Shown here in pieces: positions 11,975 through 50,600 of a DNA stretch of 64,000 bases (position 1 is its first letter; every line of letters starts with the position of its first letter). Source of the stretch: Histomonas meleagridis (taxonomy: Eukaryota; Parabasalia; Tritrichomonadida; Dientamoebidae); the NCBI GenBank assembly GCA_020186115.1, contig WSYJ01000173.1, positions 62,001 to 126,000 on the forward strand. Direction: 5' to 3'. A model generated the notes under the pieces. It worked only from the letters and a program-made list of their open reading frames with translations. It was not told the DNA's origin and made no database searches. A program made the position numbers and the translations under genes.

Positions 11975-13621
11975 ATGTGTTCTATTGTTTTATCCATGCA
12001 CATCTTTTGCTTATTACAAATCTTTCCAAATTCAGGTAGAAAGATTTTTAGTGATCAATTATCTATTTCTCAAACTCTCAAACACACTCCTTACCTTACT
12101 TTGGAATCCAAAGGGTATACATATTTACCATTCTCAACCTATAACAATGAGAGTGTATCCATTAAAGAATCAAGTTTTATTATGATAAAAGCGAATGAAT
12201 CGAATATCATTACAGAAGAATATCAGCATCATTTCTCTTTACTAAAGTTGCCGGTATCATATGTTAAACATTATTTTAGATTCTTCCCTTTGGTATTTAA
12301 TCATTTTTCAATAAAAGCTCATTTACCAATTTCATTAAATAACTTCATGAAGAAAATGTTCAAATTCAATGAAACTGTTCAAGTTCTAATTTATAACTTT
12401 TTTATTTTGGGATTTTTTTTATTATATGAAATCAAATTTTTTAGGAATAAATTGAAAACAAACGAAAAGAAAAAACATAAAAATGTTTTAATTTTTGTAA
12501 TGTTTTTCATGAATTCTTATCAAATATTTCATGAACATAATTCAACACTTTTAATCATAAATACAAATGAATTTGAAGATATTAATGAATATCAAGATAA
12601 CACGAAATTTATAATTATCAGTGAAAATATTTATACAATTCCAGGTGGTTCATTTTCAGAATGGCCTTCAGTTGTTTCAGTTAATTTTGGTAATTCTATA
12701 TCAGACATTGGGAATTATGTGTTTTCTTTATGTTCTAATTTAGAAACGATTATTTTTGGAGAAAATGTTACAACAATTGGAGGTTCAGCATTTTCATCAT
12801 GTTCATCAATCAAAAACATTACAATTCCAAATTCAGTCACAACAATTGGTGGTTCATCATTTTCATTATGTTCTAATTTAACGATATTAACACTTGGCTA
12901 TGGAATCAAAGAAATTGGAAATTCAGCATTTGGGAATTGTTATAGTCTTCGATGCATTTATTATTATGGAGATTCAGAACCAAGTATTGGAGAAAGTGCA
13001 TTTTTTAATGTTTCAACAAGTGTTATCACATATTCAACATACATTGGAAGTAAATTTGGAAATTTAGATGTTGCCAAAGAGAACACAGAAGGAACATGCG
13101 AACCACTTCCAACACGTTCATTTAGTCAGTCGAATACATTTACTGAATCACTTCAAAGTGATATTTCATTATCATTTTCATATACATTAACAATTACATT
13201 ATCAATTACACATTCATTAACTATTTATGAAACACAAACGAAAACATTTTCATTATATATAAACAATTCGGCATTTTCATATATTGAAACAGAATTTATT
13301 TATTACAGTTATACAGTTGTTATTTATTCGACTTATTATAATTATTATTCCAATTTCTTTACAATGTTTCATACTTCCAATGAAAATTCGCCAAATGGAA
13401 TTACGACAAATGTTTTGATTGGAATTATTTGCGGATCATTTGCATTTGTTTTGATCATTGTTGGAATTGTTATATTTTTAGTGAGAAGTAATAATAAGAA
13501 AGAAAAATCGATTTCAAAGTTACAGTTTAAGGATACAACAACATCAAGTACAAAGCAAATCGAAGAAGTAAATAGTTTAGTTGAAGATATTGTGAAAGAA
13601 GATGAAGACAATTGGCTATGA
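11975..13621 (+). CDS. BspA-like leucine-rich repeat membrane protein, copy A
   Basis: This 548-residue protein is of the trichomonad BspA-like (LRR_5) family, thought to be surface adhesins. Residues 1-170 are unique and contain two hydrophobic segments (near 135-155 and 168-182). LRRs follow at about 220-350, with the usual IGxxAFxxCxxL pattern (IGNYVFSLCSNLETI, IGGSAFSSCSSIKNI, IGGSSFSLCSNLTIL, IGNSAFGNCYSLRCI). A Ser/Thr-rich stretch, a transmembrane helix (LIGIICGSFAFVLIIVGIVI) and a short charged cytosolic tail complete it. Nucleotides 12492-13369 appear identical to 14983-15938 in copy B apart from one 78-nt gap; both ends are unrelated. The long N-terminus before the LRRs is unusual, so a start nearer MFFMNSYQIF remains possible. 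Confidence 0.75.
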   Translation: MCSIVLSMHIFCLLQIFPNSGRKIFSDQLSISQTLKHTPYLTLESKGYTYLPFSTYNNESVSIKESSFIMIKANESNIITEEYQHHFSLLKLPVSYVKHYFRFFPLVFNHFSIKAHLPISLNNFMKKMFKFNETVQVLIYNFFILGFFLLYEIKFFRNKLKTNEKKKHKNVLIFVMFFMNSYQIFHEHNSTLLIINTNEFEDINEYQDNTKFIIISENIYTIPGGSFSEWPSVVSVNFGNSISDIGNYVFSLCSNLETIIFGENVTTIGGSAFSSCSSIKNITIPNSVTTIGGSSFSLCSNLTILTLGYGIKEIGNSAFGNCYSLRCIYYYGDSEPSIGESAFFNVSTSVITYSTYIGSKFGNLDVAKENTEGTCEPLPTRSFSQSNTFTESLQSDISLSFSYTLTITLSITHSLTIYETQTKTFSLYINNSAFSYIETEFIYYSYTVVIYSTYYNYYSNFFTMFHTSNENSPNGITTNVLIGIICGSFAFVLIIVGIVIFLVRSNNKKEKSISKLQFKDTTTSSTKQIEEVNSLVEDIVKEDEDNWL

Positions 13622-14339
13622 ATAAACTGTGTAATGATAAATATTTTTGTTTTATTTATATATAAAATTATTTTGTTGTTATACAAAATAAAATGTAATC
13701 ATATTAACGATGATGTCATTCTGACTTTTTAATGTTTTCATAATAAAAAAATTTAATTTTGAAGTGTTTAAGTAGTATCACTGACTTTATATATAACAAG
13801 GCAAATATTGTTGAATAAATGATCAATGATTTCAAATTATGCTTTAACTTCTATTAAATGTTGACTCTTTTGAATGAACATTACTCGGATACATTATCCT
13901 TAAAAGCAAAATATCTTGTTTAAATCAAAGATACATTGAAAGGGATTATGTACATGAAGAGCTTCTTATGTAATATGTTTATTTTAAATAATGAAGGGAC
14001 TTTAAATCATCAAATGAAAGAATTCTCAATGCTTTAAAGAAAGATGAAATTTTATCATGATGGAATCAATTTTAACAAGTGAACGGCACATCAAATTAGA
14101 GCATAAATCCAACTCTATCACATATATTCATTATGTTATTTAAAAGTGTCTTCATAATGTTATAAAGTCGTTTCTTTGATTGTCTTTTTAAAAAATCGAT
14201 TCAAATATCTCAAAATCGATTTGAAAAACTTCAATTAAACAACAGGTTTTTTAATGTTTAACCGTGAGATTTTAAACTTTTGTGAAAGCCGATATATATA
14301 TATTTGGTGGAGGGCCCGAAATATATTACAAGCTGAAAC
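13622..14339. other. Intergenic region between BspA-like copies
   Basis: The region is AT-rich and I see no gene. A TATATATATATTT run lies about 50 bp before the copy B start. Confidence 0.5.
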
Positions 14340-16214
14340 ATGAAAATCTTTCTTTTGTTCAGCATTTCGATCATGGCAAAACGATTAATAACCGATATAA
14401 AGCTTATTACACCTTATATCATTCAAAAAGAAATATTACAAATACAAAATGACAAAAGAAAAGAAGGATTGACTTACCAATGTGATAGAGAAGTTTCAGT
14501 TAATGAAATTATGATCAAAAAATTCAAAAGATTTAATAATAATTATAAAGTTTTGATAAAGGTATTTTCTTTAAATTCAAGGCTTAACAATAAATCAGCA
14601 ACAATTGTACATCATGATTTTAATAACAAACAAAAATTTCCACAATCATATTTTTCAAACATTTTGAAAAAATACTTTAAAATCGATATATTTGTCAAAA
14701 ATGGAATATTTATGAGAACTTTTAACAAATCTTATGAAGATATATCTTCGATTAAACGCGAATCTTCACGTTTTTTGATGATGCAAAACGATATCGAAGT
14801 CGGACCAAATATTTTAAATGTTTTACTTCAGTTAACCATCATTTTTTCAATGATATTTTCGGTTATTTATATGAAATTTTATCAGAAAAATACAATTTCG
14901 GTTCAGAAAATATTGACGACCAAATATGTATTGGAAGTAAAAGAAAAGAAAAAAATTGAAAATATTTTTGTTTTTATTTCTGTTTTTGTAATGTTTTTCA
15001 TGAATTCTTATCAAATATTTCATGAACATAATTCAACACTTTTAATCATAAATACAAATGAATTTGAAGATATTAATGAATATCAAGATAACACGAAATT
15101 TATAATTATCAGTGAAAATATTTATACAATTCCAGGTGGTTCATTTTCAGAATGGCCTTCAGTTGTTTCAGTTAATTTTGGTAATTCTATATCAGACATT
15201 GGGAATTATGTGTTTTCTTTATGTTCTAATTTAGAAACGATTATTTTTGGAGAAAATGTTACAACAATTGGAGGTTCAGCATTTTCATCATGTTCATCAA
15301 TCAAAAACATTACAATTCCAAATTCAGTCACAACAATTGGTGGTTCATCATTTTCATTATGTTCTAATTTAACGATATTAACACTTGGCTATGGAATCAA
15401 AGAAATTGGAAATTCAGCATTTGGGAATTGTTATAGTCTTCGATGCATTTATTATTATGGAGATTCAGAACCAAGTATTGGAGAAAGTGCATTTTTTAAT
15501 GTTTCAACAAGTGTTATCACATATTCAACATACATTGGAAGTAAATTTGGAAATTTAGATGTTGCCAAAGAGAACACAGAAGGAACATGCGAACCACTTC
15601 CAACACGTTCATTTAGTCAGTCGAATACATTTACTGAATCAAATATATATGCACAAACAGATTCAATTCCATTCTCAGAATTATGTTCAATTAGTCAGTC
15701 GAACACATTTACTTCATCACTTCAAAGTGATATTTCATTATCATTTTCATATACATTAACAATTACATTATCAATTACACATTCATTAACTATTTATGAA
15801 ACACAAACGAAAACATTTTCATTATATATAAACAATTCGGCATTTTCATATATTGAAACAGAATTTATTTATTACAGTTATACAGTTGTTATTTATTCGA
15901 CTTATTATAATTATTATTCCAATTTCTTTACAATGTTTTACACTGATAATAATAATCAAAACAATGATAATAAAACAACAATTATTATCATTTCTGTTTG
16001 TGTAATTGTGATAGTAATAGCTATTATCATATCATTAATTATATTATTGAAACATATTAGAAATAAAAAAGAAGTAATTTATGAAAATGATAAATCAGAA
16101 CATAATGAAAATGAAACAACGAATACATTTACTACGGGAATAAGTAATATAACTATTGAAGAAGATCCATTCGCGGAAGATTTCCGAGAAGAAAAATTTA
16201 TTGAACAAATATAA
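14340..16214 (+). CDS. BspA-like leucine-rich repeat membrane protein, copy B
   Basis: The protein has 624 residues. Residues 1-215 are unlike copy A in sequence but have the same plan: basic, with two hydrophobic segments (near 158-175 and 208-222) before the LRR block. The LRR core matches copy A residue for residue. Copy B has 26 extra residues in the Ser/Thr-rich stretch, between two copies of a SQSNTFT repeat. The C-terminal part differs again: a new transmembrane helix (IIIISVCVIVIVIAIIISLI) and a tail ending in acidic residues. The shared core with distinct ends suggests recent gene conversion or domain shuffling. Surface location is inferred from the family and topology. Confidence 0.75.
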   Translation: MKIFLLFSISIMAKRLITDIKLITPYIIQKEILQIQNDKRKEGLTYQCDREVSVNEIMIKKFKRFNNNYKVLIKVFSLNSRLNNKSATIVHHDFNNKQKFPQSYFSNILKKYFKIDIFVKNGIFMRTFNKSYEDISSIKRESSRFLMMQNDIEVGPNILNVLLQLTIIFSMIFSVIYMKFYQKNTISVQKILTTKYVLEVKEKKKIENIFVFISVFVMFFMNSYQIFHEHNSTLLIINTNEFEDINEYQDNTKFIIISENIYTIPGGSFSEWPSVVSVNFGNSISDIGNYVFSLCSNLETIIFGENVTTIGGSAFSSCSSIKNITIPNSVTTIGGSSFSLCSNLTILTLGYGIKEIGNSAFGNCYSLRCIYYYGDSEPSIGESAFFNVSTSVITYSTYIGSKFGNLDVAKENTEGTCEPLPTRSFSQSNTFTESNIYAQTDSIPFSELCSISQSNTFTSSLQSDISLSFSYTLTITLSITHSLTIYETQTKTFSLYINNSAFSYIETEFIYYSYTVVIYSTYYNYYSNFFTMFYTDNNNQNNDNKTTIIIISVCVIVIVIAIIISLIILLKHIRNKKEVIYENDKSEHNENETTNTFTTGISNITIEEDPFAEDFREEKFIEQI

Positions 16215-23248: not shown

Positions 23249-24709
23249 TCAGCTTATTATACATTTTGAATCCTTTTGCTTTTCGTTATCATTATTTGGC
23301 ATTTTTCTTTCTGATAATTTTACCAAATACTTTTTTATCATTTCTTCGAACATTACATTTATTCCATCTCCAGTTACAGCGCTTGTTTCGAAGTATTCGA
23401 CTTCATTTGATAGTTCCATCGCTTTTCTTCTTCCTTCTTCAAAAGAAATTCTTCTTTGCTCGGCAGGAATATCGCTCATATTCCCACACAAACAAATCAT
23501 TGCGTCTTTATTATCCTCAACAGCCATTTGATAAAATTCTTTAACACTTTCGAATGAATTTTCATTATATTCATTCCAATTCCCAAGAGAAAAAACAATA
23601 ATTACTATATTTGCACTGCGACAATAGAATCTAGTCAAATGTCGAAATACTTTTATGCCAGATGTATCCCAAATTTTAATATTTATCGTGAAATCATTGA
23701 CTTCAATCGTTTTTGTTAAAGAATTCGAAATTGCAGACATTTCAGTGTCATAAGGGATTTCCAGAAATCGCTTTATGATATCTGTTTTCCCTACTGCGTA
23801 ATCGCCAATAATTGTAACATTAACATCGATCTCTTTGGGAATAACTGTTGGCGCGTCATATGGATTCCTTCCATGTATAACAGTATGGTTCATTTCGAAA
23901 TTAAGATATCTTTTATCAACATATAATTCAAGATTTGACTTAACGATTGGATAATTAAGGATGTCATTGATATTTGGGCGATTTGATGGATTAATAGATA
24001 ACATTGACTTCACAAGATTTTGTATGTCTTGACTATATATGGATGGAATCGGTTCAAAATCGCCTTTCGACACTGACGCATTGATTGCTTCGAAAGTTTT
24101 ACCAGAAAATGGAGGCTTGAGACAACAAAGTTCATAAAGAATACATCCCAATGACCATATGTCGGCTTTAGAACCATATGGCTCGCCTGAGAATACTTCT
24201 GGTGATGAATATCCAGGAGTTCCACATTTTGTCGCACATAATTCATAAGTATTTTCAAGTGGTCGAGCAATCCCAAAGTCTCCTAACTTAATTGTTCCAT
24301 CCTTCATAAGAAATACGTTTTGTGGTTTAAGGTCACGATGAAGGATTTTCCGGTCATGTATGTACTTAATAGCAAATGCAAGTTGGATGAAGTCATGAAG
24401 AATTTCATCTTCTGAGAATTCTTTTCTATTGTTTTTAAAACATCGAATTTTTTGAGATAAATCACCTCCGTCTGCATATTCCATAACAATATAAAGATAT
24501 TCTTTTTCCCAGAAACCATCAACATATTTAACAATATTTGGATGATTCATACTTTTTAGAATTTCTGCTTCTTTGATATTTTCGATTGGTTTCATTGGCA
24601 TATACATTTTTTTGATAACAAACTTTTCCTTTGATGATTTACGCTCTGCAAGGATAGCCTCGCCGAAAGTTCCTCTTCCAAGTACTTTAATTGTTTCGTA
24701 CTTTTTCAT
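23249..24709 (-). CDS. NEK-type protein kinase fused to a Ras-like GTPase with CAAX end
   Basis: The protein has 486 residues in one uninterrupted frame. Residues 4-260 are a complete Ser/Thr kinase of the NEK type: glycine loop GRGTFGEA (11-18), Lys33, HRDLKPQN (124-131), DFG (144-146) and DIWSLGC (183-189). Residues 296-465 are a Ras/Rab-like GTPase: GDYAVGKT (302-309), WDTSG (347-351, normally DTAGQ), GNMSD (409-413, normally NKxD) and ETSAVTGDG (441-449). The last four residues, CIIS (483-486), form a prenylation box. Kinase motifs are intact, so it should be active and membrane-bound. The GTPase lacks the catalytic Gln. Both domains are co-linear with no break, so this is a real fusion, not two genes. 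Confidence 0.9.
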   Translation of the reverse strand: MKKYETIKVLGRGTFGEAILAERKSSKEKFVIKKMYMPMKPIENIKEAEILKSMNHPNIVKYVDGFWEKEYLYIVMEYADGGDLSQKIRCFKNNRKEFSEDEILHDFIQLAFAIKYIHDRKILHRDLKPQNVFLMKDGTIKLGDFGIARPLENTYELCATKCGTPGYSSPEVFSGEPYGSKADIWSLGCILYELCCLKPPFSGKTFEAINASVSKGDFEPIPSIYSQDIQNLVKSMLSINPSNRPNINDILNYPIVKSNLELYVDKRYLNFEMNHTVIHGRNPYDAPTVIPKEIDVNVTIIGDYAVGKTDIIKRFLEIPYDTEMSAISNSLTKTIEVNDFTINIKIWDTSGIKVFRHLTRFYCRSANIVIIVFSLGNWNEYNENSFESVKEFYQMAVEDNKDAMICLCGNMSDIPAEQRRISFEEGRRKAMELSNEVEYFETSAVTGDGINVMFEEMIKKYLVKLSERKMPNNDNEKQKDSKCIIS

Positions 24710-25006: not shown

Positions 25007-26495
25007 CTACATATTATTAATTAGTTTAACTATTTCTTTGTAACCTCTTCTAGATGCATAAAAATGTGCTGTTTTAAACAAATTAAATAATTTCCGAATA
25101 TTCTTTTCAAATTTTAAATTATTAAAATAAGTTCTAAATAAAACAAATATATATCTGACGCATTAATGTCAATTCCTTTTTGTTCAAGAAGTAACTTAAC
25201 GATTTCTGTATGACCACATTTTGATGCATAAATAAGTGCTGTTCTAAATTTTTTATATAATTTCTAAATATTATTTTCAAATTTTAAATTATTAAAATAA
25301 ATTCTAAATAAAACGATTAAATATCTTTAAAATTAACATTGATTCCTTCTTGTTCAAGAAGTAATTTAACTATTTCTGTATAACCTTTTTCGGACGCAAT
25401 CAGAAGTGCTGTTCTAAATAATTTAAATAATTTCCAAATATTATTTTGAAATATAAAATTATTAAAATAAATATCTATAGCATTAATAGCAATTCCTTTT
25501 TGTTTAAGAAGTAATTTAACTATTTCTATATTACCATTTTCAGATGCCCAAATAAGTGCAGTTCGAAATATTTATAATAATTTTCAAATATTATTTTGAA
25601 ATCCAAAATTATTAAAATAAATTTTAAATAAAATTAAAAAATACCTTTAACATTAACATCAATTCCTTCGTGTTCAAGAAGTAATTTAACTATTTCTACA
25701 TGACTTTTTTCAGATGCTAAAATAAGTGCTGTGTTAAATATTTATAATAATTTCCAAATATTATTTTGAAATATAAAATTATTAAAATAAGTTCTAAATA
25801 AAATGAATAAATATCTTTTGCATTAATATCAATACCTTTTTGTTCAAGAAGTAATTTAATTATTTCTATATAACCATTTAAAGATGCACATATAATTGGA
25901 GTCAAATATTTTTTATATAATTTCCAAATTTTGTTTTGAAATATCAAAAGATCAAAACTAACTTTCAACAAAATAAACAAATATCTTTTACATTAATATC
26001 AATTCCTTTTTGTTCTAGAAGTAATTTAACTATTTCTATGTTCCCGTTTATAGATGCAAGTGTAAGTACTGAATCAAATTATTTAAAGAATTTCCAAATA
26101 TTATATCGAAATATTAATTCATTATAATAAATTTTAAACAAAACGAACAAACATTTTTAGGGTTAATATCAATTCCTTTTTGCTCGAGAAGTAATTTAAC
26201 TATTTTTATATAACCATATTCGGATGCATACATAAGTGCTGTACAAAATAATTTGAACAATTTCTAAATATTATTTTGAAACATTAAATCATTACAATAA
26301 ACACCAAATAAAACACATAAATATCTTTAATATTAATATTAATTCCTTTTTGTTCTAGAAGTAATTTAACTATTTTTGTATAACCACATTCGGATGCACA
26401 AATAAGTGCTGTTTTAAATAATTCCAAAAAATTCCAAATATTATATTATAATATCAAATTACCAAAGTAAACATCGACGAAAACAAATGAACATC
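25007..26495 (-). repeat. Interrupted ankyrin array: nine repeats with 87-nt inserts
   Basis: Nine ankyrin repeats (each TALxxAS...EIVKLLLEQKGIDINAKD) continue the N-terminal DUF3447 frame, but each is separated by a conserved AT-rich insert. The repeat starts (first C of CACTT or its equivalent) fall at 26408, 26238, 26068, 25898, 25728, 25558, 25408, 25238 and 25068. The spacing is therefore 170 nt, with a single 150. The inserts share TTTCAAAATAATATTTGGAA followed by ATTATTTAAATTATTT. They hold stops in the frames needed for translation and have no consistent GT-AG ends. The last repeat ends in a natural in-frame stop at 25007-25009 (KEIVKLINNM, then TAG). Confidence 0.85.
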
Positions 26496-27671
26496 TTTAG
26501 CATTAATACCAATTTTATAATGATTCATAATATATATAATAAGTTCAACATTTCCTGATTCTACTGATTTTACCAAAATATCACTGGTAATTTTATTGTT
26601 TTGGAGAAAATGTTTAACAAGATATAAGTTTCCAGTTCTTGCTGATTCATTAATAATAGAATCATTAATTCGTAATCCTTCTTCGATCAAAAACGAAAGG
26701 ATTTCATAATTACCAAAATCAATACATAAGATCCCAAAATCATCATTAATATTAAGTGGATCTTTTCTTCGTGTTCTTTTTTGTGATTTTTGTAATGGAT
26801 TTTTTTCTAATTTATTGTCATAAACATATTTAAACACATCATTTTTATGGAATTTAATTGCAGTTTCATATGCACCTTCAAATGATATATTGTTTTGTTC
26901 ACATAAATGAATTATCTCTATATTTCCCCCTGCAATTGCATATTTACCAGTATTTCCGACTTTTGCTCCATTCATAAGTAAATATTTAAAACATTTAACT
27001 GATCCAAAAAATGCTGCATAATCAATTAATGTAACAACATTTTTCTTATTAACAAATGAATATCTTTCATAAAGTGATGGTTTGATTGTTTGATTAAAAT
27101 TAAATTCTGTTTGTGATGATAATTTTTGAAGTTTTTCTATTTCATCATTTCGAATTATTTTTGAGATTTCATTTGGATTATCGCCTTCTTCAACATATTT
27201 CTTATGAAGTTCCCAATCATTCTTTGATAGTTCATCAAAAGCTGAAAAGAATTCATCGTAAAAATGTGGTTTATCATGTGAATTCTTTATCCTTTTGATT
27301 TCTTCTTCAGTCTTAAATTGAGAAAAATATAAAGTATTTAAATTGTCGACAAGAGCTGAATCAATTAAACCTTTTTCAATCATGTTTTGAAGAAGAAAAT
27401 ATGATTCTGCTGTTTCTAATTGGAGCAAATATTTACTAAATATATCAACTAATTTGTCATTTTGCTTTTTTAATGATAATAAATATTGTATACATACGTT
27501 TTTATTAGATGTTTTCGATATAAACATTGAATATAATAATCTTGATATAAGAAAATTAAATGAGAATGGATAATCAGAATCAAACATGTTCATAACTGCT
27601 TGTGAAGATGATTCAATATTTTCAGCATTAACTCCAATGAAAATTTGTTCCAATTTTTTCACAAATTCCAT
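26454..27671 (-). CDS. DUF3447/ankyrin protein, N-terminal domain
   Basis: The uninterrupted part has 405 residues from ATG 27671. Residues 1-150 are the helical N-terminal region typical of trichomonad DUF3447 proteins. Then come DWELHKKYVEEGDNPNEISKIIRNDE and YAAFFGSVKCFKYLLMNGAK, which start ankyrin-like repeats. The frame runs on through GINAKD, then 10 residues of the first insert (VHLFSSMFTL), and stops. Beyond that lie nine more ankyrin repeats on the same strand, each after an 87-nt type insert, ending in a proper stop at 25007. The full gene is therefore probably 25007-27671, if the inserts are removed from the RNA. An initiator-like TCATT lies 14 nt before the ATG. Its substrate or partner is unknown; ankyrin repeats bind proteins. 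Confidence 0.75.
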   Translation of the reverse strand: MEFVKKLEQIFIGVNAENIESSSQAVMNMFDSDYPFSFNFLISRLLYSMFISKTSNKNVCIQYLLSLKKQNDKLVDIFSKYLLQLETAESYFLLQNMIEKGLIDSALVDNLNTLYFSQFKTEEEIKRIKNSHDKPHFYDEFFSAFDELSKNDWELHKKYVEEGDNPNEISKIIRNDEIEKLQKLSSQTEFNFNQTIKPSLYERYSFVNKKNVVTLIDYAAFFGSVKCFKYLLMNGAKVGNTGKYAIAGGNIEIIHLCEQNNISFEGAYETAIKFHKNDVFKYVYDNKLEKNPLQKSQKRTRRKDPLNINDDFGILCIDFGNYEILSFLIEEGLRINDSIINESARTGNLYLVKHFLQNNKITSDILVKSVESGNVELIIYIMNHYKIGINAKDVHLFSSMFTLVI

Positions 27672-32289: not shown

Positions 32290-32617
32290 ATCAATAAAAT
32301 GTAATTACAATGAATAATTTTGCCTAATTTGAATTTATTAACAACATTAATTAAGTGTATAGGAAAGCAATAAAATTTGTTTTTAAGATTTAAAAAATTA
32401 TAAAGTCCATTCCTATAAAATCAATAAAAGAGTTCTTGAAACATAAATATGATCAAGCAACGTAACAGGAAATAAAAACAATATATCATTTGCAATGTAA
32501 TACAGTAAATAATTTAACATATAAAAATGTTGTTTGACATTAAGATTAAAAAAGATTTTTATTTGTTTCAATAATTTGATATTTCAAAATAATATTGTGA
32601 TTTTATTAATCAAAAAA
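32290..32617. other. Intergenic region after HSP70
   Basis: AATAAA-type strings follow the HSP70 stop. Nothing else is recognisable. Confidence 0.5.
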
Positions 32618-33600
32618 ATGTTACATTAATTGATAATGCACATTCTTTGGATCAATCAAATGTTCTAAATATTTGCTTATAAATGGTGCAAATGTATTAA
32701 ATATAGGTGAGTATGCTATTGCAGGTGGAAATGAAAAATCATTCATTTATGTGAACAAAATCATATCTTTGAATATCTTTATGAGAAAAATTTAAAAGAA
32801 AAACAAAATCAATTTACATTATAATCACTAGTGATGAATCTTATTATTCTTATGATGATTATAATGATATAATTACAAAATTATGTGAATTAAGAAAGAA
32901 ATGTATAACATATCATCCTAATTTTGTTCATTTTTGCTTGAAGAAGGAATGAGCATTAATGATGATTTTTTTTAATGAATCAGCAAATATTGGAAATATA
33001 TTTATTACAAAACAATATTAATTTATTCTGCATCAAGAAATTTTGAACTTGTAAAATATATTCTTGAACTAAAAACTATTGATCTAATGCAATAGATATT
33101 TATTTTCTTAATTTGAAATATATTTTGTCAATTTGATATCAAAATAATGTTTGGAAATTAATTTAAACATATAAAATAGCACTTATGAAAGTATCTGATA
33201 AAAGGATGATAAAATAGTTTAAAATTCTTCTTGAACAGAGAGAAATTAATGTTAATGCTAAAGATATTTATTTGTGTTATTTAGAATTGGCTTTAATGAT
33301 GATCTATTTCAAAACAATATTTGGAAATTACTTTTAATTTTTAACACTGCACTTATACATGCAACTGAACAAGGCCACACAAAAATAGATAAATTACTTC
33401 TTATACGAAAAAGGAGTCGATCTCAATGCAAAAAATATTTTATTTGGTTTTATATTATTGTATATTATTAATTTAAAATTTGAAAATAATATAAGGAAAT
33501 TATTTTAGATATTTTAAATAACACTTATTTAGGTATCTCAAAATGGCTATACAGAAATTGACAAATTACTTCAAGAAGAAATTCTCATGAATACGAAGAA
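32618..33600 (+). pseudogene. Decayed DUF3447/ankyrin gene
   Basis: Traces of the DUF3447 family are clear but broken. TTACATTAATTGATAATGCA and a stretch resembling LLINGA...YAIAGGNE, with frame changes, are followed by three or four ankyrin pieces (for example ALIHATEQGHTKIDKLLL at 33340-33410). These are separated by the same type of insert as in the two larger arrays, including TTTCAAAACAATATTTGGAA near 33307. Several stops and small indels remove any long frame. It shows that the inserts are older than this decay. Confidence 0.7.
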
Positions 33601-38526: not shown

Positions 38527-39108
38527 TTATATGGCTGCAACAACAGTTGCAACTGTTCCAGCAACTTTGACAACCTTTGTTACGGTCTTGACGATCTTCT
38601 TAAGGGAGAATTTGTTTTCGTCTTCTGAATCTTGAACAAGTGCATAGTATGTTTCAACTTCTTCATCATCGTTTGTGATTTCGTCGATAACATCAACAAC
38701 CTTCTTTGTCTTGTCAACAACATCCTTAACCTTCTTGACGATCTTCTTGATGGAGAACTTGTTTTCATCTTCTGCATCTGGGACGATTTCGTAGTAAACT
38801 TCTTCTTCTTCTTCATCGTTTGTGATTTCGTCTATAACATCAACAACCTTCTTTGTCTTGTCAACAACATCCTTAACTTTAGAAATAATTTTCTTGATCT
38901 TGAATTTGTTTTCGCTTTCTGGGTCTTGAATGAGGACATATGAGAAGTCATCATCATCATTTGTAGTTATTTTCTTGATTGGTTTTGTGAAATTACCGAA
39001 ATGGTGTCTCTTGTGGCGAAATTCTGGGAACTTCTTGTGTGGCATCATTGGCTTACGGGTAACATTTGGAAGCCTGATTGAACGCAAAGCGAGCAATGCA
39101 AATAACAT
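38527..39108 (-). CDS. Secreted protein with basic helices between acidic spacers
   Basis: The protein has 193 residues from ATG 39108. The first ~13 residues (MLFALLALRS) suggest a signal peptide. A His/Arg/Lys-rich stretch follows. Then come three repeats of about 48 residues at 57-104, 105-152 and 153-193. Each opens with a Tyr-containing acidic part and NKF(S/K)(I/L)KKI, then a Lys/Val-rich amphipathic helix (KKVKDVVDKTKKVVDVIDE), then a run such as NDEEEEE. The last repeat ends in a hydrophobic cationic tail (KTVTKVVKVAGTVATVVAAI). The layout resembles precursors in which acidic spacers neutralise cationic membrane-active helices, but no processing site is certain. Function is unknown. 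CCACTTTTTGAATTCC lies about 115 bp upstream. Confidence 0.6.
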   Translation of the reverse strand: MLFALLALRSIRLPNVTRKPMMPHKKFPEFRHKRHHFGNFTKPIKKITTNDDDDFSYVLIQDPESENKFKIKKIISKVKDVVDKTKKVVDVIDEITNDEEEEEVYYEIVPDAEDENKFSIKKIVKKVKDVVDKTKKVVDVIDEITNDDEEVETYYALVQDSEDENKFSLKKIVKTVTKVVKVAGTVATVVAAI

Positions 39109-40072: not shown

Positions 40073-41252
40073 ATGTCAAGAGAGCAAAGCCAAAGCAGTT
40101 TTTCTACAGATGATATGGAAGAACTTCGAAAGGAAGCCTCTAGCCGTAAATCGTTGTCATTTATTGAAGATGATAAATTACAACCTTTCCATGATTATTT
40201 ATGGGAACTTAAAGAAAAGTTTCTTGAAGACGATGAATACATTGAAGCCAAAGATGCATCGGAGCTAATGGAAAGATGCAAAATTGAAATTCAACATCGA
40301 AGTTCGAACTCAAATTCAATGGGTTCAAGATCACAATCAAAAGCAAATGATTCAGTCACGAATCAAATGGTTCAAGAGTATGTATTTTTTCAATTCCAAA
40401 AATGATAATATTAATAATTATTTTTTTTTTGGAATTAATTTTATTCAATAACTAACACATAGATATTCCAAAAAGATACAAGAACACGATGAAACTACAA
40501 AGCAAAAATATTCCAAACTTCAAGAGAAACATAAACATGAACTTGAAGAATTTGAAAAAGAATGGGAAGAAAATATGCCTGATAAATATAGACGTCCATC
40601 ACGAAAACTCATTGAACTTCGGCAAACAGCACATAATCTTGCGTTATGTGGGAATTTTGATGAAGCTCAAGAGCGCAAAGTCGAAGCTGAAAATCTTGAA
40701 ATAAAAGAAACAGAAGAAGCTCAAAAGCGCCTTAATAAAGAATATTCGATTGCAAAGAACAAACTCATTAGAAAACAAGCAGAAGAAGTTCGCGCATTCC
40801 AAGAAAATGCACAACAGCAAAGAGATATTCTTATCTCGAAGAAGCACGTTGCAGAACAGGCATCAAATAACCGTAAAAATGTATTGAATCTAAAACCGTC
40901 ACAGAAATCGCGCCTAACATCTTCGTTAAGATCAAGCGGATCTCCAACTCGCCCAATTGTAACAAGAAGATCACATAATAGAAATATTGAAAAGAAGCTC
41001 CCACCTTTGAGGCCACCAAAGGAAGAAGCACAACAAAATAATAAGACAAATAGTCAATTCAAAGATCCGAAAAAACAACAAAAACATAAGCCAATAGAAG
41101 AAGAACATACCAACATGGAATCTGACAAAAAAGATGAAGAATTAGAGTTAAAGCCTCTTGTGATTGAAACAAATCAAAACGAAAATGAAGAAAATGAAAA
41201 TGAAAGTAATAACGAACAAGAAGTACAAACTCCGAAAAGCGAAAGTGAATAA
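40073..41252 (+). CDS. Spliced coiled-coil protein (two exons)
   Basis: Exon 1 is 40073-40377 and exon 2 is 40463-41252, giving 364 residues. The intron (40378-40462, 85 nt) starts GTATGT and ends ACTAACACATAG, the trichomonad branch-acceptor block. Joining restores one frame: exon 1 ends in GA and exon 2 supplies A, then TAT TCC AAA. Without splicing, exon 1 stops soon after the junction. The protein is charged and helical: an N-terminal region around HDYLWELKEKFLEDDEY, then a coiled coil with YRRPSRKLIELRQTAHNLAL and FDEAQERKVEAE, a pattern common in trichomonad coiled-coil proteins. A basic, Ser/Pro-rich part and an acidic tail follow. Probable cytoskeletal role; not recognised further. 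Confidence 0.85.
40378..40462 (+). other. Spliceosomal intron, 85 nt
   Basis: The 5' end is GTATGT and the 3' end is ACTAACACATAG, one base from the ACTAACACACAG block known in Trichomonas introns. The interior is AT-rich with stops. Removal joins two frames exactly. Confidence 0.92.
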
Positions 41253-44580: not shown

Positions 44581-45816
44581 GTGAATTTGAAATCTACTCA
44601 AATAACATATCAAATTCTTTTAGACCTTGAAACAATTATATTTAATTTAGATCAAGAAAACCTAGGATTATCTGTTGGATCAATATTTCAACTTTTGTCA
44701 ACACCTACATGTTTCCCAAAATCGATTATTTATATGATACCAAGATATTTTTATTCATCTTTTATATCACAACATTTAGATGTTAACTTATTACTTGATT
44801 ACCTAATAAAAATTGAAGAAAACGACGAAATAGTCCCTTCAGTAATTGATCTTTTTATAAATAATCTCATCAATTCAATTTCAGAAGAGTCACATTATGT
44901 TCTTGTAAAAATGCTTGAACGAAATTTAATTAATTCGTATACCTTTAAAAATATTCAAGATAAATATTTATGGCGTTATAAAAATAATGAAAAAAACAAA
45001 TTTTCTTCTCTTCTTATCAGAAATTATGAAGAATTTTCAAGGAATGATTTTGAACTTCATAAGAAATATGTTGAAGAAGGAGTTAATTTAGATGAAATCT
45101 CAAAAATAATTCGAAATGATGATATAGAAAAACTTCAAGAAAAATCATCACAACCAAATTTTGATATTAATCATATAATTGAACCATCACTTTATGAAAG
45201 ATGTTCATTTATAAATAAAGATAATGTTACATTAATTGATTATGCAGCATTTTTTTCAGCAGTAAAATGTTTTAAATATTTACTTATGAATGGTGCAAAA
45301 GTAAATAATACAGGCAAATATGCAATTGCAGGTGGAAATGAAGAAATTATTCATTTATGTGAACAAAATCATTCATCTTTTGAAGATGCATATGAAACAG
45401 CAATTCAATATCATCAAAATGAAATCTTTAAATATCTTTATGAAAATAAAATTAATGAAATAGAAGATTTATCAAATCTAGGAATTGAGTGTATTAAATA
45501 TGATAATTATATTCTTTTTTCATTTTTAGAAGAAAAAGGAATGAAAATAAACGAACAAATAGCAAAAATGTCAGCAGAAAATGGTAATGCGTTTATCATA
45601 AAAACATTTACAGAAACTCATCAAACTCCAAATTATTTTTTACCGAATTTAATAAAACAAGGAAATATCGAAATAATTAAATTACTTCTTGAACAAGAAG
45701 GAATTGATATTAATGCCACATGTATTTATTTGTTTTATTTAATATTTATTTTAATAATTTTTTATTTCAAAATAATATTTAGAAATTATTCAAATTATTT
45801 CAAACAGCACTTATAG
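44581..45816 (+). CDS. DUF3447/ankyrin protein, N-terminal domain, no ATG at the expected start
   Basis: The open frame has 411 codons and is a paralogue of the minus-strand gene at 26454-27671. Shared segments are DFELHKKYVEEGVNLDEISKIIRNDD, LYERCSFINKDNVTLIDYAAF, CFKYLLMNGAKV and GKYAIAGGNEEIIHLCEQN. The frame begins with GTG (GTGAATTTG) where the paralogue has ATGGAATTTG, so the start codon seems lost. The first in-frame ATG is 44734 (residue 52). The frame ends inside the first insert; eight or nine more ankyrin pieces follow to 47358. It may be a pseudogene, or translation may begin downstream. Confidence 0.65.
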   Translation: MNLKSTQITYQILLDLETIIFNLDQENLGLSVGSIFQLLSTPTCFPKSIIYMIPRYFYSSFISQHLDVNLLLDYLIKIEENDEIVPSVIDLFINNLINSISEESHYVLVKMLERNLINSYTFKNIQDKYLWRYKNNEKNKFSSLLIRNYEEFSRNDFELHKKYVEEGVNLDEISKIIRNDDIEKLQEKSSQPNFDINHIIEPSLYERCSFINKDNVTLIDYAAFFSAVKCFKYLLMNGAKVNNTGKYAIAGGNEEIIHLCEQNHSSFEDAYETAIQYHQNEIFKYLYENKINEIEDLSNLGIECIKYDNYILFSFLEEKGMKINEQIAKMSAENGNAFIIKTFTETHQTPNYFLPNLIKQGNIEIIKLLLEQEGIDINATCIYLFYLIFILIIFYFKIIFRNYSNYFKQHL

Positions 45817-47358
45817 AAGCATCTTCATATGGTTATACAGAAATCGTTAAATTGCTTCTTGAACAAAAGGAAATTGATATCAATGTTATAGGTATTTATT
45901 TGTATTATTTAATATTTGTTTTGATAATTTTCTATTTCAAAATAATATTCAGAAATTATTTAAATTATTTCAAACAGCACTAATAGTTGCATCTATGAAA
46001 GGTTATACAGAAATAGTTAAATTACTTCTTGAACAAAAAGGAATTGATATTAATGTTATCGACATTTATTTGTTTTATTTAGTTTTTATTTTAATAATTT
46101 TATATTTCAAAAAAACATTTGAAAATTATTTAAAATATTTAATACAGCACTTATTTGGGCATCTGATAAAGGATATATCGAAATAGCTAAATTACTTCTT
46201 GAACAAGAAGGAATTGATATTAATTCAAAAGAAATTTATATATTTTATTTAGAATTTGTTTTAATAATATCATATTTCAAAATAATATTTGGAAATTATT
46301 TAAATTATTTCAAACAGCGCTTATGATTGCATCTGATAAAGGTCATATAGAATTAGTTAAATTACTTCTTGAACAAGAAGGAATTGATATTAATGCTAAA
46401 GATAATATTTCTATTAATAATTTGAAATTTCAAAATAATATTTGGAAATTATTTATATTTTTTAAAACAGCACTTATGTTAGCAACTGATAATCATCGTA
46501 CAGAAATCGTCAAATTACTTCTTGAACAAGAAGGAATTGATATTAATTCAAAAGATATTTATTCGTTTTGTTTATTATTTATTTTAATAATTTGAAATTT
46601 CAAAATAATATTTGGAAATCATTTAAATTATTTAGTACAGCACTTATATGGGCATCTGATAGAGGTTATACAGATATAGTTAAATTACTTCTTGAACAAG
46701 AAGGAATTAATATTAATGTTAAAGGTAATTATTTATTTTATTTAGAATTTATTTTAACAATTTAAAATTTGAAAATAATATTTGGAAATCATTTAAATTA
46801 TTTAGTACAGCACTTATATGGGCATCTGATAGAGGTTATACAGATATAGTTAAATTACTTCTTGAACAAAAAGGAATTGATGTTAATGCTAAAGATATTT
46901 ATTTGCTTTAAATAAAATTCGTTTTGGTGATTTTATATTTCAAAATAATATTTGGAAATTATTTAAATTATTTCAGACTCCACTTATTTGTGCGGTTCAA
47001 GCCAATAAAATAGAAGCAATTAAATTACTTCTTGAACATAAAAGAACCAAAGTTAATGCTAAAGATATTTATTTGTTTTGTTCAATATTTGTTTTAATAA
47101 TTTTATATTTCAAAATAATATTATATTATACACCACTTATGTATGCGGTTGAAAATAGACAAGCAGAGATAGTTAAATTATTACTTGAACAAGACAATAT
47201 AAAGACTAAAACTGGATTATTTGTATCAAACTATTTTTTCAAAATTAATTAAATTTTTTCTGTCATTACTTGATACGGCAACTTCTAATGGATCCACAGA
47301 AATTGTTGAATTACTTCAATACCACGATTCACAAGAAAAGCAATGTTTTATTGAATAA
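45717..47358 (+). repeat. Interrupted ankyrin array: repeats with 87-nt inserts
   Basis: Repeat starts (first C of CACTT or its equivalent) lie at 45808, 45978, 46148, 46318, 46471, 46641, 46811, 46981 and 47134. The spacing is 170 nt except for two units of 153. Each ankyrin piece (such as ALIWASDKGYIEIAKLLLEQ) is intact. The insert between them carries the same core as the minus-strand array, 20 kb away. The last piece (ATSNGSTEIVELLQYHDSQ) is diverged and ends in TAA at 47356-47358. Units starting 46641 and 46811 are almost identical, showing recent duplication. Confidence 0.85.
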
Positions 47359-47608: not shown

Positions 47609-50600
47609 TTATTTGTTACCGAATAATTTATTTTCATAATATATGACACTGTTACAATAAGACTTTACCATATCCACATTCACATTCGATGCAATATCAT
47701 TAATATATTTCAAGATCATTCTAATGATATTATCAAACGAAGCGTTTGGATCTGTTTGACAGTATCTAATGAACTCTTCACTAAACTCAGAATTCGTACC
47801 AATGATTTCTTCGAACATATAAGAAAACTGGATTAAGTCATTTCTAATAGTTCCTGATACTAAACCATAATCAGATATCATTGGGAATCTTTGTGAATTC
47901 AGCATTACATTTGAACATTTCAAGTTACCATGAATTATATTAAACCGATGCAAAAACCGTAAACCAAAAGCGACGCCGATCAAATTTATGACTTTTTGAG
48001 TGCTATTCAATTTGCTTAACGAATCCTTTAACGATCCCTCGATTCTATACATTGAATACAACACATTTGAATTGCTGAAATTGAAGTCGCAACCGTAATA
48101 TTTCAATACGCACGGATGAAGTAACTTTGCCAAATACAAAATCTGGTTTCTCAATCCTTGTGTAACGTTATTCAAAAACTTCGCCGATAAAATCAAACCG
48201 TTTTCCTTATGGTAAATTCGAAAAGTTTTCCCAAGGATACCATTTCCTATTTGGTTTGTCACAACGAAGTTATTTATGCTAAAGTCAGTCAAGTTTTGAT
48301 TTAAGAAGTAATTCAACCCCAAATGTTTCAACGGCAAATTATTACAAATGATAAATGAATGTTGTGAACCAGAAATTATATCATTCGGTGTCAAATCGTT
48401 AAAGAATTTGATACTTTTTGGTAAATTTTCGGCATTAGTTTCATCGAACAAAAACAATTGATGTAATTTATTTGATCCGCAACCGAACACTCTGTTATCT
48501 TTTGTAATGAACAAACTGAAATCCTTACCCAATGCCATTGTTTCTATTTTCAAGGAACTTAAGAACTTACATTCTTCGAAATTAATATTAAATATTGTTT
48601 CTGTTCCAAGTTGCAAGTTATTATTTTCTCCGCACATAAACACTTGTCCACCATTCGTTAACACAGCTATATGTTGATAATAACCGAATACGTAATTACA
48701 AATATAATTTGATAATTCATTGATCAGTTGAATTTTATCATCGACAATTTTATATGCTTTTCCGTCAATAGTTATTACGATAGTTAAGTTCATATTTGAT
48801 GCTACGTCATATACTTTACAAGGGAATTTATATTTTTGTACTTGTGTATTAGTTACGTTCATATATAAATCTCCATTTGAATCAATAGCACAAAATGTTT
48901 TAGCACTTGTTGAAAGATAAATAATTTTTGTTGGTAATTTAAATATTTGAGGTTGCGAAGAATATATTGAACAATATATTAATTCATTATTTGTTGTTAA
49001 GTATAAAGTATAATTATCACCACATTTAACATTTTGGATTATATAATTTTCGAATTCTATTTTTACGTAATCATTAAATATTTTATTTTTGTTTGTTCCA
49101 ATTTTATTTTTATTATCATCACCGATCACCAAAATTGTATTATTTTTATATAAAAACACTGAATGATTATTACCTGCAGTAATATTTAATATATTATCAT
49201 AATTAATTGGCATTAAATAAGGTTTATCTTTAATTTCATTATTACATATTTGTTTATAAGTATTATCACCACATCCATAAACTTTGACATTTGAATCATT
49301 ACTGAAATAATATTTATCATTTTTATCGACGTTAATTACATGTGCATTACGTATTGTTGTTGATATAAATGTATTAATATCATTAAATGTTTTGACTTCT
49401 TCTTTAGGTATATATTGATTTATTATATTTGTATTATAAGTTACAAATCGTTTTAATGTATTAATATTATTTATCATGAAAATAGTTTTAGTACTAAAAC
49501 TAATTATATTATTAACTTTAGCTTTCAATTGTATAGTTTTCGATGAATTATCATAACATGGTAATAATTGTCCATTACTATTTGAACCTAATGCATACAT
49601 TTTATTATCTTCTGTTAACAAAATAACAAAATTTTGTCCAAAATGTATTTCTTTAAATGTATCATTCGAATATCGAATTTCAAAGAAATAATCCGAACTA
49701 ATTAATTCGTTTTTATATGGTAATTTATCTTCTGTCCAACCAGTAATGAAAGCTTTTCCATTTTCAGTGATGAAACCTAAATGTTTATATAGTCCAAATA
49801 CTCTTTTGATGGGAATTTCGGTGAAATTTTTGAACTTTTGAAATGAACTATAATTCTTTGATATATAACATTCACCTTTTTCAGTTAATACAAATGTATA
49901 ATTCTTCGAAAATGAAATATCTATAGGTCTTTCAGGGAAGTTAAACTTAAAAGTCGATTTTCCTTTAAATAAATGTATTTCTCCATTTAAATCAATACAA
50001 CAAGGATTTAATGGTGAACCAGAAATATATACAACAGGTGACTTAAACTTAATGAAATAAGGTTCATAATTACAATCAATTGAACATAACATTAATGATC
50101 CATCAGATAATAAATATAATGAATAATTATCTCCACAAAAAACTCGTTTAATTGTTCGATTATTTAATTTGTCGAATTTTATTTCTGTTAAGTTTTCATA
50201 TCTTTTTCTTTCTTTTGTACCAATTTGAAAGTTTGTATCATCACCGATTACATATATTAAATTCTTTTTATAGATTAATATTAAATGATTTAATCCTAAT
50301 CCAATGGATTTAATATCAATTGGTGTTATGTCTAATGTTAAATTATCAGAAAATATTAAATTCGGTTTTGTGATTTCATTCATAAATTTAAGTTCATGTT
50401 GGAAAATGGCTCTATAACTTAAAAGTTTCTCATTAAAATATGTGAATAAGTTTTTGATTTCATTTAAGTTCAAATCTTTCATTAACATTTTGAGTTTGTT
50501 TCGAATGGTTTCACAATTCGATGGTAATATTTGTAAATCGATTTGATTTTCATATTGTTCTCTTCCGAAATTCTTTTGAATAATTTTCACATATTTTTGC

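What the first reader, a model, noticed from the sequence alone, without database searches (positions are those of the whole stretch)
25007..27671. Conserved 87-nt non-coding inserts split every ankyrin repeat (minus-strand gene)
After the DUF3447 domain the gene holds nine ankyrin repeats at a strict 170-nt period, whereas a 33-residue repeat needs 99 nt. Each repeat is followed by an AT-rich insert at the same codon (just after NAKD). The inserts share TTTCAAAATAATATTTGGAA. The insert at 26239-26325 has stops in both the incoming and the outgoing frame, so simple frameshifting cannot cross it. Yet all ankyrin pieces are intact, and the last ends in a natural stop. There are no GT-AG ends and no ACTAACACACAG block, unlike the true intron at 40378. 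Options are an unusual excised element, non-canonical introns, or a gene family kept alike by homogenisation after decay.
Basis: partly seen in the sequence, partly recalled or inferred. Interest (0 to 1): 0.9.

Follow-up and report, generated by a model that had tools for sequence, protein, structure and literature searches.

The report
Untranslated 17-nt elements between ankyrin-loop codons
In a poultry parasite's large family of ankyrin genes, repeats have about four neighbouring codons that are each preceded by a 17-letter AT-rich stretch; the codons look kept for protein while the stretches do not look translated, so the cell probably skips or cuts out dozens of them per gene by an unknown route.

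Summary
The extra DNA in each ankyrin repeat is not one 71-87-nt insert. It is a chain of 17-nt AT-rich elements, normally four, each followed by one 3-nt codon: 4 x (17+3) = 80 nt between the N-A-K-D and T-A-L codons. The four codons spell the ankyrin turn x-x-Gly-x and are under coding selection: 0 stops in 664 (34 expected), and genome-wide 441 TAY against 0 TAA/TAG at one of them. The 17-mers carry stops at about shuffled frequency, so they do not look translated. Length 17 is the sharp mode. Chains of 1-8 elements occur, as do copies lacking exactly one 17-mer. Contig lengths identify the genome as Histomonas meleagridis. A core of the chain has about 5,100 places, hence an inferred >20,000 elements. 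Dead arrays are unlikely: 7 of 284 ankyrin pieces have a stop (128 simulated). No GT-AG ends, no branch motif and no matched take-off/landing codons were found. My best guess is RNA-level removal as tiny, non-canonical introns; ribosomal bypassing is the main rival. No RNA data could be examined.

The parts
26493..27671 (-). N-terminal part: uninterrupted open frame with DUF3447 and ankyrin matches, up to the first N-A-K-D codons
   Evidence: ORF; Pfam (DUF3447 E 8.4e-13); 98 of 107 listed rows (the query itself included) have no stop, most about 50-56% identical
26413..26492 (-). loop 1: four 17-nt elements, each followed by one sense triplet
26323..26412 (-). ankyrin piece 1 (90 nt, T-A-L to N-x-K-D)
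26243..26322 (-). loop 2 (4 elements + 4 triplets); stops in both flanking frames
26153..26242 (-). ankyrin piece 2
26073..26152 (-). loop 3 (4+4)
25983..26072 (-). ankyrin piece 3
25903..25982 (-). loop 4 (4+4)
25813..25902 (-). ankyrin piece 4
25733..25812 (-). loop 5 (4+4)
25643..25732 (-). ankyrin piece 5
25563..25642 (-). loop 6 (4+4)
25473..25562 (-). ankyrin piece 6
25413..25472 (-). loop 7 (60 nt: 3 elements + 3 triplets)
25323..25412 (-). ankyrin piece 7
25243..25322 (-). loop 8 (4+4)
25153..25242 (-). ankyrin piece 8
25073..25152 (-). loop 9 (4+4)
   Evidence: read
25007..25072 (-). last, partial ankyrin piece ending in TAG
   Evidence: read
45724..47129 (+). second array of the same kind in a plus-strand paralogue: nine loops (80,80,80,80,63,80,80,80,63 nt); the 63-nt loop at 46404-46466 lacks exactly element 1, the one at 47067-47129 the last element
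32540..33560 (+). third, visibly decayed array: broken N-terminal part, a stop in its one scored ankyrin piece, off-length elements (contrast case; approximate borders)

Best explanation
Shown by sequence statistics: in this ankyrin family the loop between N-A-K-D and T-A-L is a chain of [17-nt AT-rich element + one codon]; the codons are selected as protein-coding, and the 17-mers show no comparable avoidance of stops in any frame. Inferred: the 17-mers are removed one by one from the RNA, as tiny non-canonical introns of near-fixed length with ends R(T)TT...ATTT, leaving single codons as 3-nt exons. Every exonic bit is a multiple of 3, so a wrong pairing of ends would only shorten the loop and never shift the frame; this may explain why chains of 1 to 8 elements are tolerated. 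The chains probably grew by duplication of 20-nt (element + codon) and 170-nt (repeat) units.
For: Codons: 0 stops in 664 triplets against 34.3 expected from column frequencies, 0 of 732 with tandem-type chains, 0 in the 97 exact-match rows against 15.4 by column shuffles. Genome-wide, triplet 2 is TAA/TAG 0 times and TAY 441 times (14.4 expected at the neutral rate of copies with the same exact flanks, 37.2 at the rate of all sampled loops); triplet 4 is TAA/TAG 1 time in 1,585. Triplet 3 is Gly in 133 of 166: GGA 125, GGG 6, GGT 2. Of 51 element-free matches to the same flanks elsewhere in the genome, 23 have a Gly codon there (counted by eye; 19 of the other 28 are copies of one unrelated repeat). 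Elements: stops near shuffled frequency. Pieces: 7 of 284 with a stop against 128 simulated. Length: with lengths 12-22 left free, 703 of 939 parsed elements are 17 nt; shuffled loops are flat, 74 of 898. 211 of 225 loops fit 17m+3c. Precise absence of one 17-mer beside an intact codon (all nine 63-nt loops: seven lack element 1, two the last, by eye) is what intron loss looks like. Element ends vary less than interiors (0.155 against 0.231). No element-sized gap was found inside ankyrin pieces.
Against: No transcript was examined, so removal at the RNA level is inference. GT...AG occurs in 0 of 732 elements. Single-codon exons between 17-nt introns have no precedent that I know of. 14 of 225 loops do not fit 17m+3c, and they are not concentrated in arrays that carry stops (odd lengths in 10 of 27 arrays without a stop, 0 of 5 with one), so exact length is not proven essential. 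Expected stop counts treat copies as independent, although many are related; only tries a rate that allows for this. Contexts of the genome-wide places were checked only in the sampled stretches.
Confidence: 0.5

Rival explanations
1. Ribosomal bypassing: the mRNA keeps the elements and the ribosome jumps 17 nt after each loop codon.
For: Explains untranslated elements, selected codons and near-fixed length. Many short frame-breaking inserts (81 places) are bypassed in Magnusiomyces mitochondria (PMC5009743, passages).
Against: The take-off codon equals the last 3 nt of the element in 7 of 732 units, so there is no matched landing codon, although matched codons are missing in some Magnusiomyces cases too. 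Take-off codons vary freely. 35 successive jumps in the window gene would need near-perfect efficiency.
Confidence: 0.17
2. Ribosomal frameshifting: the elements are translated with one shift each.
For: 722 of 732 units can be crossed by one -1 shift at some position. Against shuffles, element 2 has fewer uncrossable copies (1 against 5.3 +- 1.3) and element 4 slightly fewer stops in frames 0 and 2 (22 against 29.0 +- 2.5; 26 against 33.9 +- 2.7).
Against: Summed over the four elements, uncrossable copies equal the shuffled value (10 against 10.6 in 664), with elements 1 and 3 above it (6 against 2.8; 2 against 0.3). Stops are common in the elements: element 2 has one in the outgoing frame in 150 of 166 copies, element 3 in the incoming frame in 138 of 166, so no common shift site exists; no fixed position works for more than 545 of 732.
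Confidence: 0.04
3. Homogenised pseudogene arrays: the genes died when the elements arrived and look intact only by gene conversion.
For: The family is huge and tandem; some arrays, such as window 32.5-33.6 kb, are decayed. Eleven of all 331 pieces carry a stop.
Against: Elements vary as much as six four-fold sites of the pieces (0.195 against a mean of 0.196, range 0.095-0.346), yet codons and pieces in the same copies avoid stops. Two limited patterns for element-free loops found no copy that I recognise as a master of this family. The N-terminal frame has no stop in 98 of 107 listed rows, though these are the best-scoring of 2,430 candidates.
Confidence: 0.1
4. One conventional large insert or intron (about 71-80 nt) per repeat.
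For: 170-nt period with a 99-102-nt repeat.
Against: The three inner triplets would be removed too, yet they avoid stops (0 of 498 against 22.7) and carry the ankyrin Gly. Chains of 20, 40, 60 ... 160 nt are not explained.
Confidence: 0.04
5. DNA-level excision: an expressed, element-free version of the genes arises by programmed DNA deletion.
For: Precise 17-nt losses exist.
Against: No element-free copy recognised in the assembly with two limited patterns; no such process is known to me in parabasalids (recalled).
Confidence: 0.05

Closest known systems
Tiny spliceosomal introns of Stentor coeruleus (15-16 nt)
   Same: AU-rich, very short, almost invariant length
   Different: Most Stentor introns are GU...AG with a branch A at a fixed place (PMC9505925, passages); here 17 nt, R..TT ends, and single-codon exons between them
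Type B introns of Trichomonas vaginalis and T. stableri (23-28 nt)
   Same: Parabasalid, uniformly short, T-rich
   Different: GT/AG plus an extended CTAAC..AG motif and one or two per gene (PMC12316389, passages); here no such motif and 35 elements in one gene
byp elements of Magnusiomyces mitochondria and T4 gene 60 bypassing
   Same: Short frame-breaking inserts inside otherwise intact genes
   Different: Mitochondrial or phage; [quoted passage not shown] not matched here, nuclear, codon-spaced, repeated thousands of times
Exon-per-repeat genes (repeat arrays with an intron in every repeat; recalled)
   Same: Insert at the same place of every protein repeat, spread by unit duplication
   Different: There one intron per repeat; here each loop codon has its own element

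Membership tests
Spliceosomal intron | GT...AG ends | tested here: not met
   0 of 732 elements
Spliceosomal intron | Trichomonad branch/3' motif (CTAAC...AG) | tested here: not met
   Absent from the element profiles; individual elements were not scanned one by one
Spliceosomal intron | Absent from mature mRNA | not testable with these tools
   No RNA reads available
Tiny fixed-length intron (Stentor-like) | Sharp length mode | tested here: met
   17 nt in 703 of 939 free parses, flat control
Tiny fixed-length intron (Stentor-like) | Conserved ends | tested here: met
   Ends 0.155 against interior 0.231 heterozygosity; but the ends are not GT/AG
[quoted passage not shown]
   7 of 732
Translational bypass element | Element kept in mRNA, absent from protein | not testable with these tools
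   No RNA or protein data available
Programmed frameshift | Inserted sequence open along the shifted path more than by chance | tested here: not met
   Total 10 uncrossable of 664 against 10.6 shuffled; classes deviate both ways, element 2 favourably
Ankyrin repeat | x-x-G-x turn before T-A-L and a 30-residue piece | tested here: met
   Triplet 3 Gly 133 of 166; pieces. Pfam was run on the N-terminal parts only

The most novel reading that the evidence does not exclude
A nuclear gene family whose coding sequence is interrupted codon by codon: more than 20,000 17-nt elements, each removed singly from RNA by a non-GT-AG route, leaving single-codon exons. Because every exonic bit is a whole number of codons, loop length could even vary between messages of one gene without breaking the frame.
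Probability: 0.4. Interest if true: 0.97.

Novelty: categorically new. Interest (0 to 1): 0.92.

Why it matters
If the elements are spliced, they are near the lower size limit of any intron, lack the usual splice-site rules, and sit around exons of one codon, which would force a rethink of what a splicing machine must recognise. If they are skipped by the ribosome, it would be mass use of bypassing in a nuclear gene family. Either way, a very large gene family of a sequenced parasite may have been annotated only up to its first loops.

Tried and rejected
Rejected: a single 71-nt insert with ends at the flanking ATTT repeats (does not explain triplets 1-3); GT-AG inside the insert (frame and 3' end do not fit, and T codons are ACA or ACT alike); an open frame running into the next piece as evidence of coding (open in 82 of 123 loops, but element stops lie near shuffled levels); other chains in the window (by eye none outside the three arrays among the hits); the core in viral contigs (0 hits). 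Elements inside ankyrin pieces: half-piece spacing is normal in 256 of 258 (two 1-nt indels); third-piece spacing is 30 in 305 of 308 and, for the later junction, 30 in 261 and 27 (one codon fewer) in 47 of 312; no step of +17. An element lying inside a block would escape these tests. The exact T. vaginalis motif ACTAACACACAG is not enriched in this genome (3 places, 2 in the reversed control). Linking off-length elements to damaged arrays gave no association. My length-free parser mis-segments some loops because ATTT recurs; 6 of its 865 triplets were stops, and I did not separate parsing errors from true lesions.

Sampling: 225 loops from the window plus 40 fetched stretches. The first 20 stretches were chosen for many core matches, so they favour well-kept arrays; the other 20 follow the best N-terminal matches. 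Pieces scoring 20-35 (47 of 331, 4 with a stop) were left out of the 284. The 664-triplet count uses the 166 loops of exactly 80 nt; other lengths were left out of that count, and 68 triplets from chosen loci with 20n-nt chains were added for 732. The 17m+3c test allows at most two codons more than elements.

Not in print: searches of the held library (seen as listings) and passages of PMC8529796, PMC10063853, PMC12316389, PMC9505925, PMC5009743 and PMC6250841 gave no report of such elements; no whole paper was read, and subscription papers, among them the 2017 transcriptome paper, were not seen.

Full report
What organism. The genome (43.28 Mb, 121 contigs) holds contigs of 3,384,422 and 673,467 bases. 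These equal the largest contig and the N50 in the Histomonas meleagridis virulent-strain paper (PMC8529796, Table 1 seen as a passage). A named H. meleagridis protein has the same longest contig. The paper gives 43,414,808 bases in 187 contigs, so the held copy is a somewhat smaller set. The paper reports 573-638 introns, and 'ankyrin' occurs 0 times in its text.

The gene. The minus-strand N-terminal frame is open and matches DUF3447 and ankyrin. A search with it listed 107 rows, the query itself included, from 104 scored candidates out of 2,430 first-look candidates. Nearly all are 50-56% identical to the query; 98 of 107 rows have no stop, and three genes appear as two rows each. These are the best-scoring copies, so the share of intact genes in the whole family may be lower.

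The anatomy. In 325 kb (window plus 40 stretches) I found 331 ankyrin pieces of 90 nt, 284 of them with good scores. The step between pieces is 170 nt in 175 cases; others are 110, 130, 150, 190, 210, 230 and 250 (20-nt steps), or 153, 173, 167 and so on. The 80-nt loop splits as 17+3 four times: consensus ATTTATTTGTTTTATTT-xxx, ATTTATTTTAATAATTT-xxx, ATTTCAAAATAATATTT-GGA, AATTATTTAAATTATTT-xxx. Other subfamilies carry chains of ATATGTTTTAATAATTT-xxx; across all types the loops hold one to eight elements. All nine 63-nt loops lack one element exactly with its codon kept: seven lack element 1, two the last (read by eye). Of 225 loops, 211 fit 17m+3c.

The codons are coding. In 166 loops of 80 nt, 0 of 664 triplets are stops, where column frequencies predict 3.7 + 14.8 + 4.2 + 11.6 (shuffles agree). 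Triplet 3 is glycine in 133 of 166, with three synonymous codons. Triplet 1 is K/N/E/D in 127, triplet 2 D/Y/N in 86, triplet 4 N/K/D/E in 105 of 166. Element-free matches to the same flanks elsewhere in the genome have a Gly codon in that place in 23 of 51 cases; 19 of the other 28 are copies of one unrelated repeat (by eye; no family search was made on them). Genome-wide exact counts give 441 TAY and 0 TAA/TAG for triplet 2. Even at the low rate of T-to-A/G change in sampled copies with the same exact flanks, 14.4 would be expected. For triplet 4 it is 1 in 1,585. TGA was not counted genome-wide.

The elements do not look coding. Stops occur in the elements' frames close to column shuffles, with deviations of up to about 3 standard deviations in both directions: for example fewer in element 4 frames 0 and 2, more in element 2 frame 1 and element 3 frame 0. 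This is nothing like the complete absence in the triplets. The number of elements that no single -1 shift can cross is 10 of 664, against 10.6 shuffled (10 of 732 with the tandem type). Element columns vary about as much as six four-fold sites in the pieces (0.195 against a mean of 0.196, range 0.095-0.346), with ends (0.155) more constant than interiors (0.231). So the elements drift nearly freely apart from their ends, while codons beside them in the same copies are guarded. Selection has therefore probably acted on the codons since the elements were in place. This is the main argument against dead arrays, together with 7 stop-bearing pieces of 284 where 128 are simulated (the simulation treats differences as independent). 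The decayed array at 32.5-33.6 kb shows what loss of selection looks like.

Length. A parser that scores only the two ends and lets the length run from 12 to 22 nt returns 17 nt in 703 of 939 elements; shuffled loops give a flat distribution (74 of 898 at 17). Fourteen loops do not fit 17m+3c. They do not cluster in arrays with stops, so small length errors may be tolerated. I found no element-sized gap inside ankyrin pieces.

How common. The core around the Gly codon has 5,171 places; allowing for about 1% double counts in the sample (2 of 177) this is about 5,100. In the sample 174 of 177 places lie next to an ankyrin piece. At four elements per loop this means more than 20,000 elements; that product is an inference. 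The tandem type adds 1,726 + 963 places, though its reversed control is also high (224 + 97), because the pattern is AT-rich, and their surroundings were not examined.

A probable second lineage. Proteins from unnamed short contigs (P0001-P0013 other than P0011) share 36-53% identity with the query. I searched two of these twelve in the genome: P0001 is at best 66% identical over its whole length and 71% over a part, P0009 51% over nearly its whole length and 57% over a part. So those two are not from this assembly. Several frames stop right after N-A-K-D-I. P0009 reads through a loop of 63 nt: by hand, its residues fit codon, 17 nt, codon, 17 nt, Gly codon, 17 nt, codon before T-A-L (no computing call). 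I cannot tell whether those contigs are DNA or RNA; if RNA, they would show retained elements.

Mechanism. Shown by statistics: codons kept, elements not translated in any consistent way. Not shown: at which step they are dropped. I favour RNA-level removal because lost elements leave precise joints and because a narrow size with conserved ends is the mark of tiny introns elsewhere. The ends are not GT-AG (0 of 732), and single-codon exons are unheard of to me. Bypassing lacks matched codons (7 of 732). All exonic bits are whole codons, so mispaired ends would only shorten the loop.

Verdict. A real and very strange feature, robust at the level of sequence statistics. The mechanism is open and testable with existing RNA data.

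Noticed in passing
window 32540-33560 (+): Decayed third copy of the family with a broken N-terminal part, an in-frame stop in its scored ankyrin piece and off-length elements; useful as a contrast to intact arrays.
   Followed up: partly
window 23249-24709 (-): One frame looks like a NEK-type protein kinase joined to a Ras/Rab-like GTPase domain (my reading of the residues, no family search).
   Followed up: no
window 11975-16214 (+): Two neighbouring BspA-like leucine-rich repeat genes with near-identical central parts, a recent duplication (family name is my reading).
   Followed up: no
whole genome: The exact T. vaginalis 3' intron motif ACTAACACACAG has only 3 places, 2 for the reversed control, so this species may use variants such as ACTAACACATAG (window 40451-40462).
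   Followed up: partly
window 38527-39108 (-): Small protein with about two 147-nt repeats rich in acidic residues and lysine-valine motifs.
   Followed up: no
window 47609-52828 (-): 1739-aa frame that looks like RCC1-type repeats followed by a kinase-like domain (my reading, no family search).
   Followed up: no
P0009 (protein of a probable second lineage): Carries the same 17+3 chain, readable because 63 nt is a multiple of three.
   Followed up: partly
L037, L044 and other loci: A subfamily uses near-identical tandem 20-nt units (ATATGTTTTAATAATTT + codon) in place of the four distinct elements, which suggests how chains grow.
   Followed up: partly
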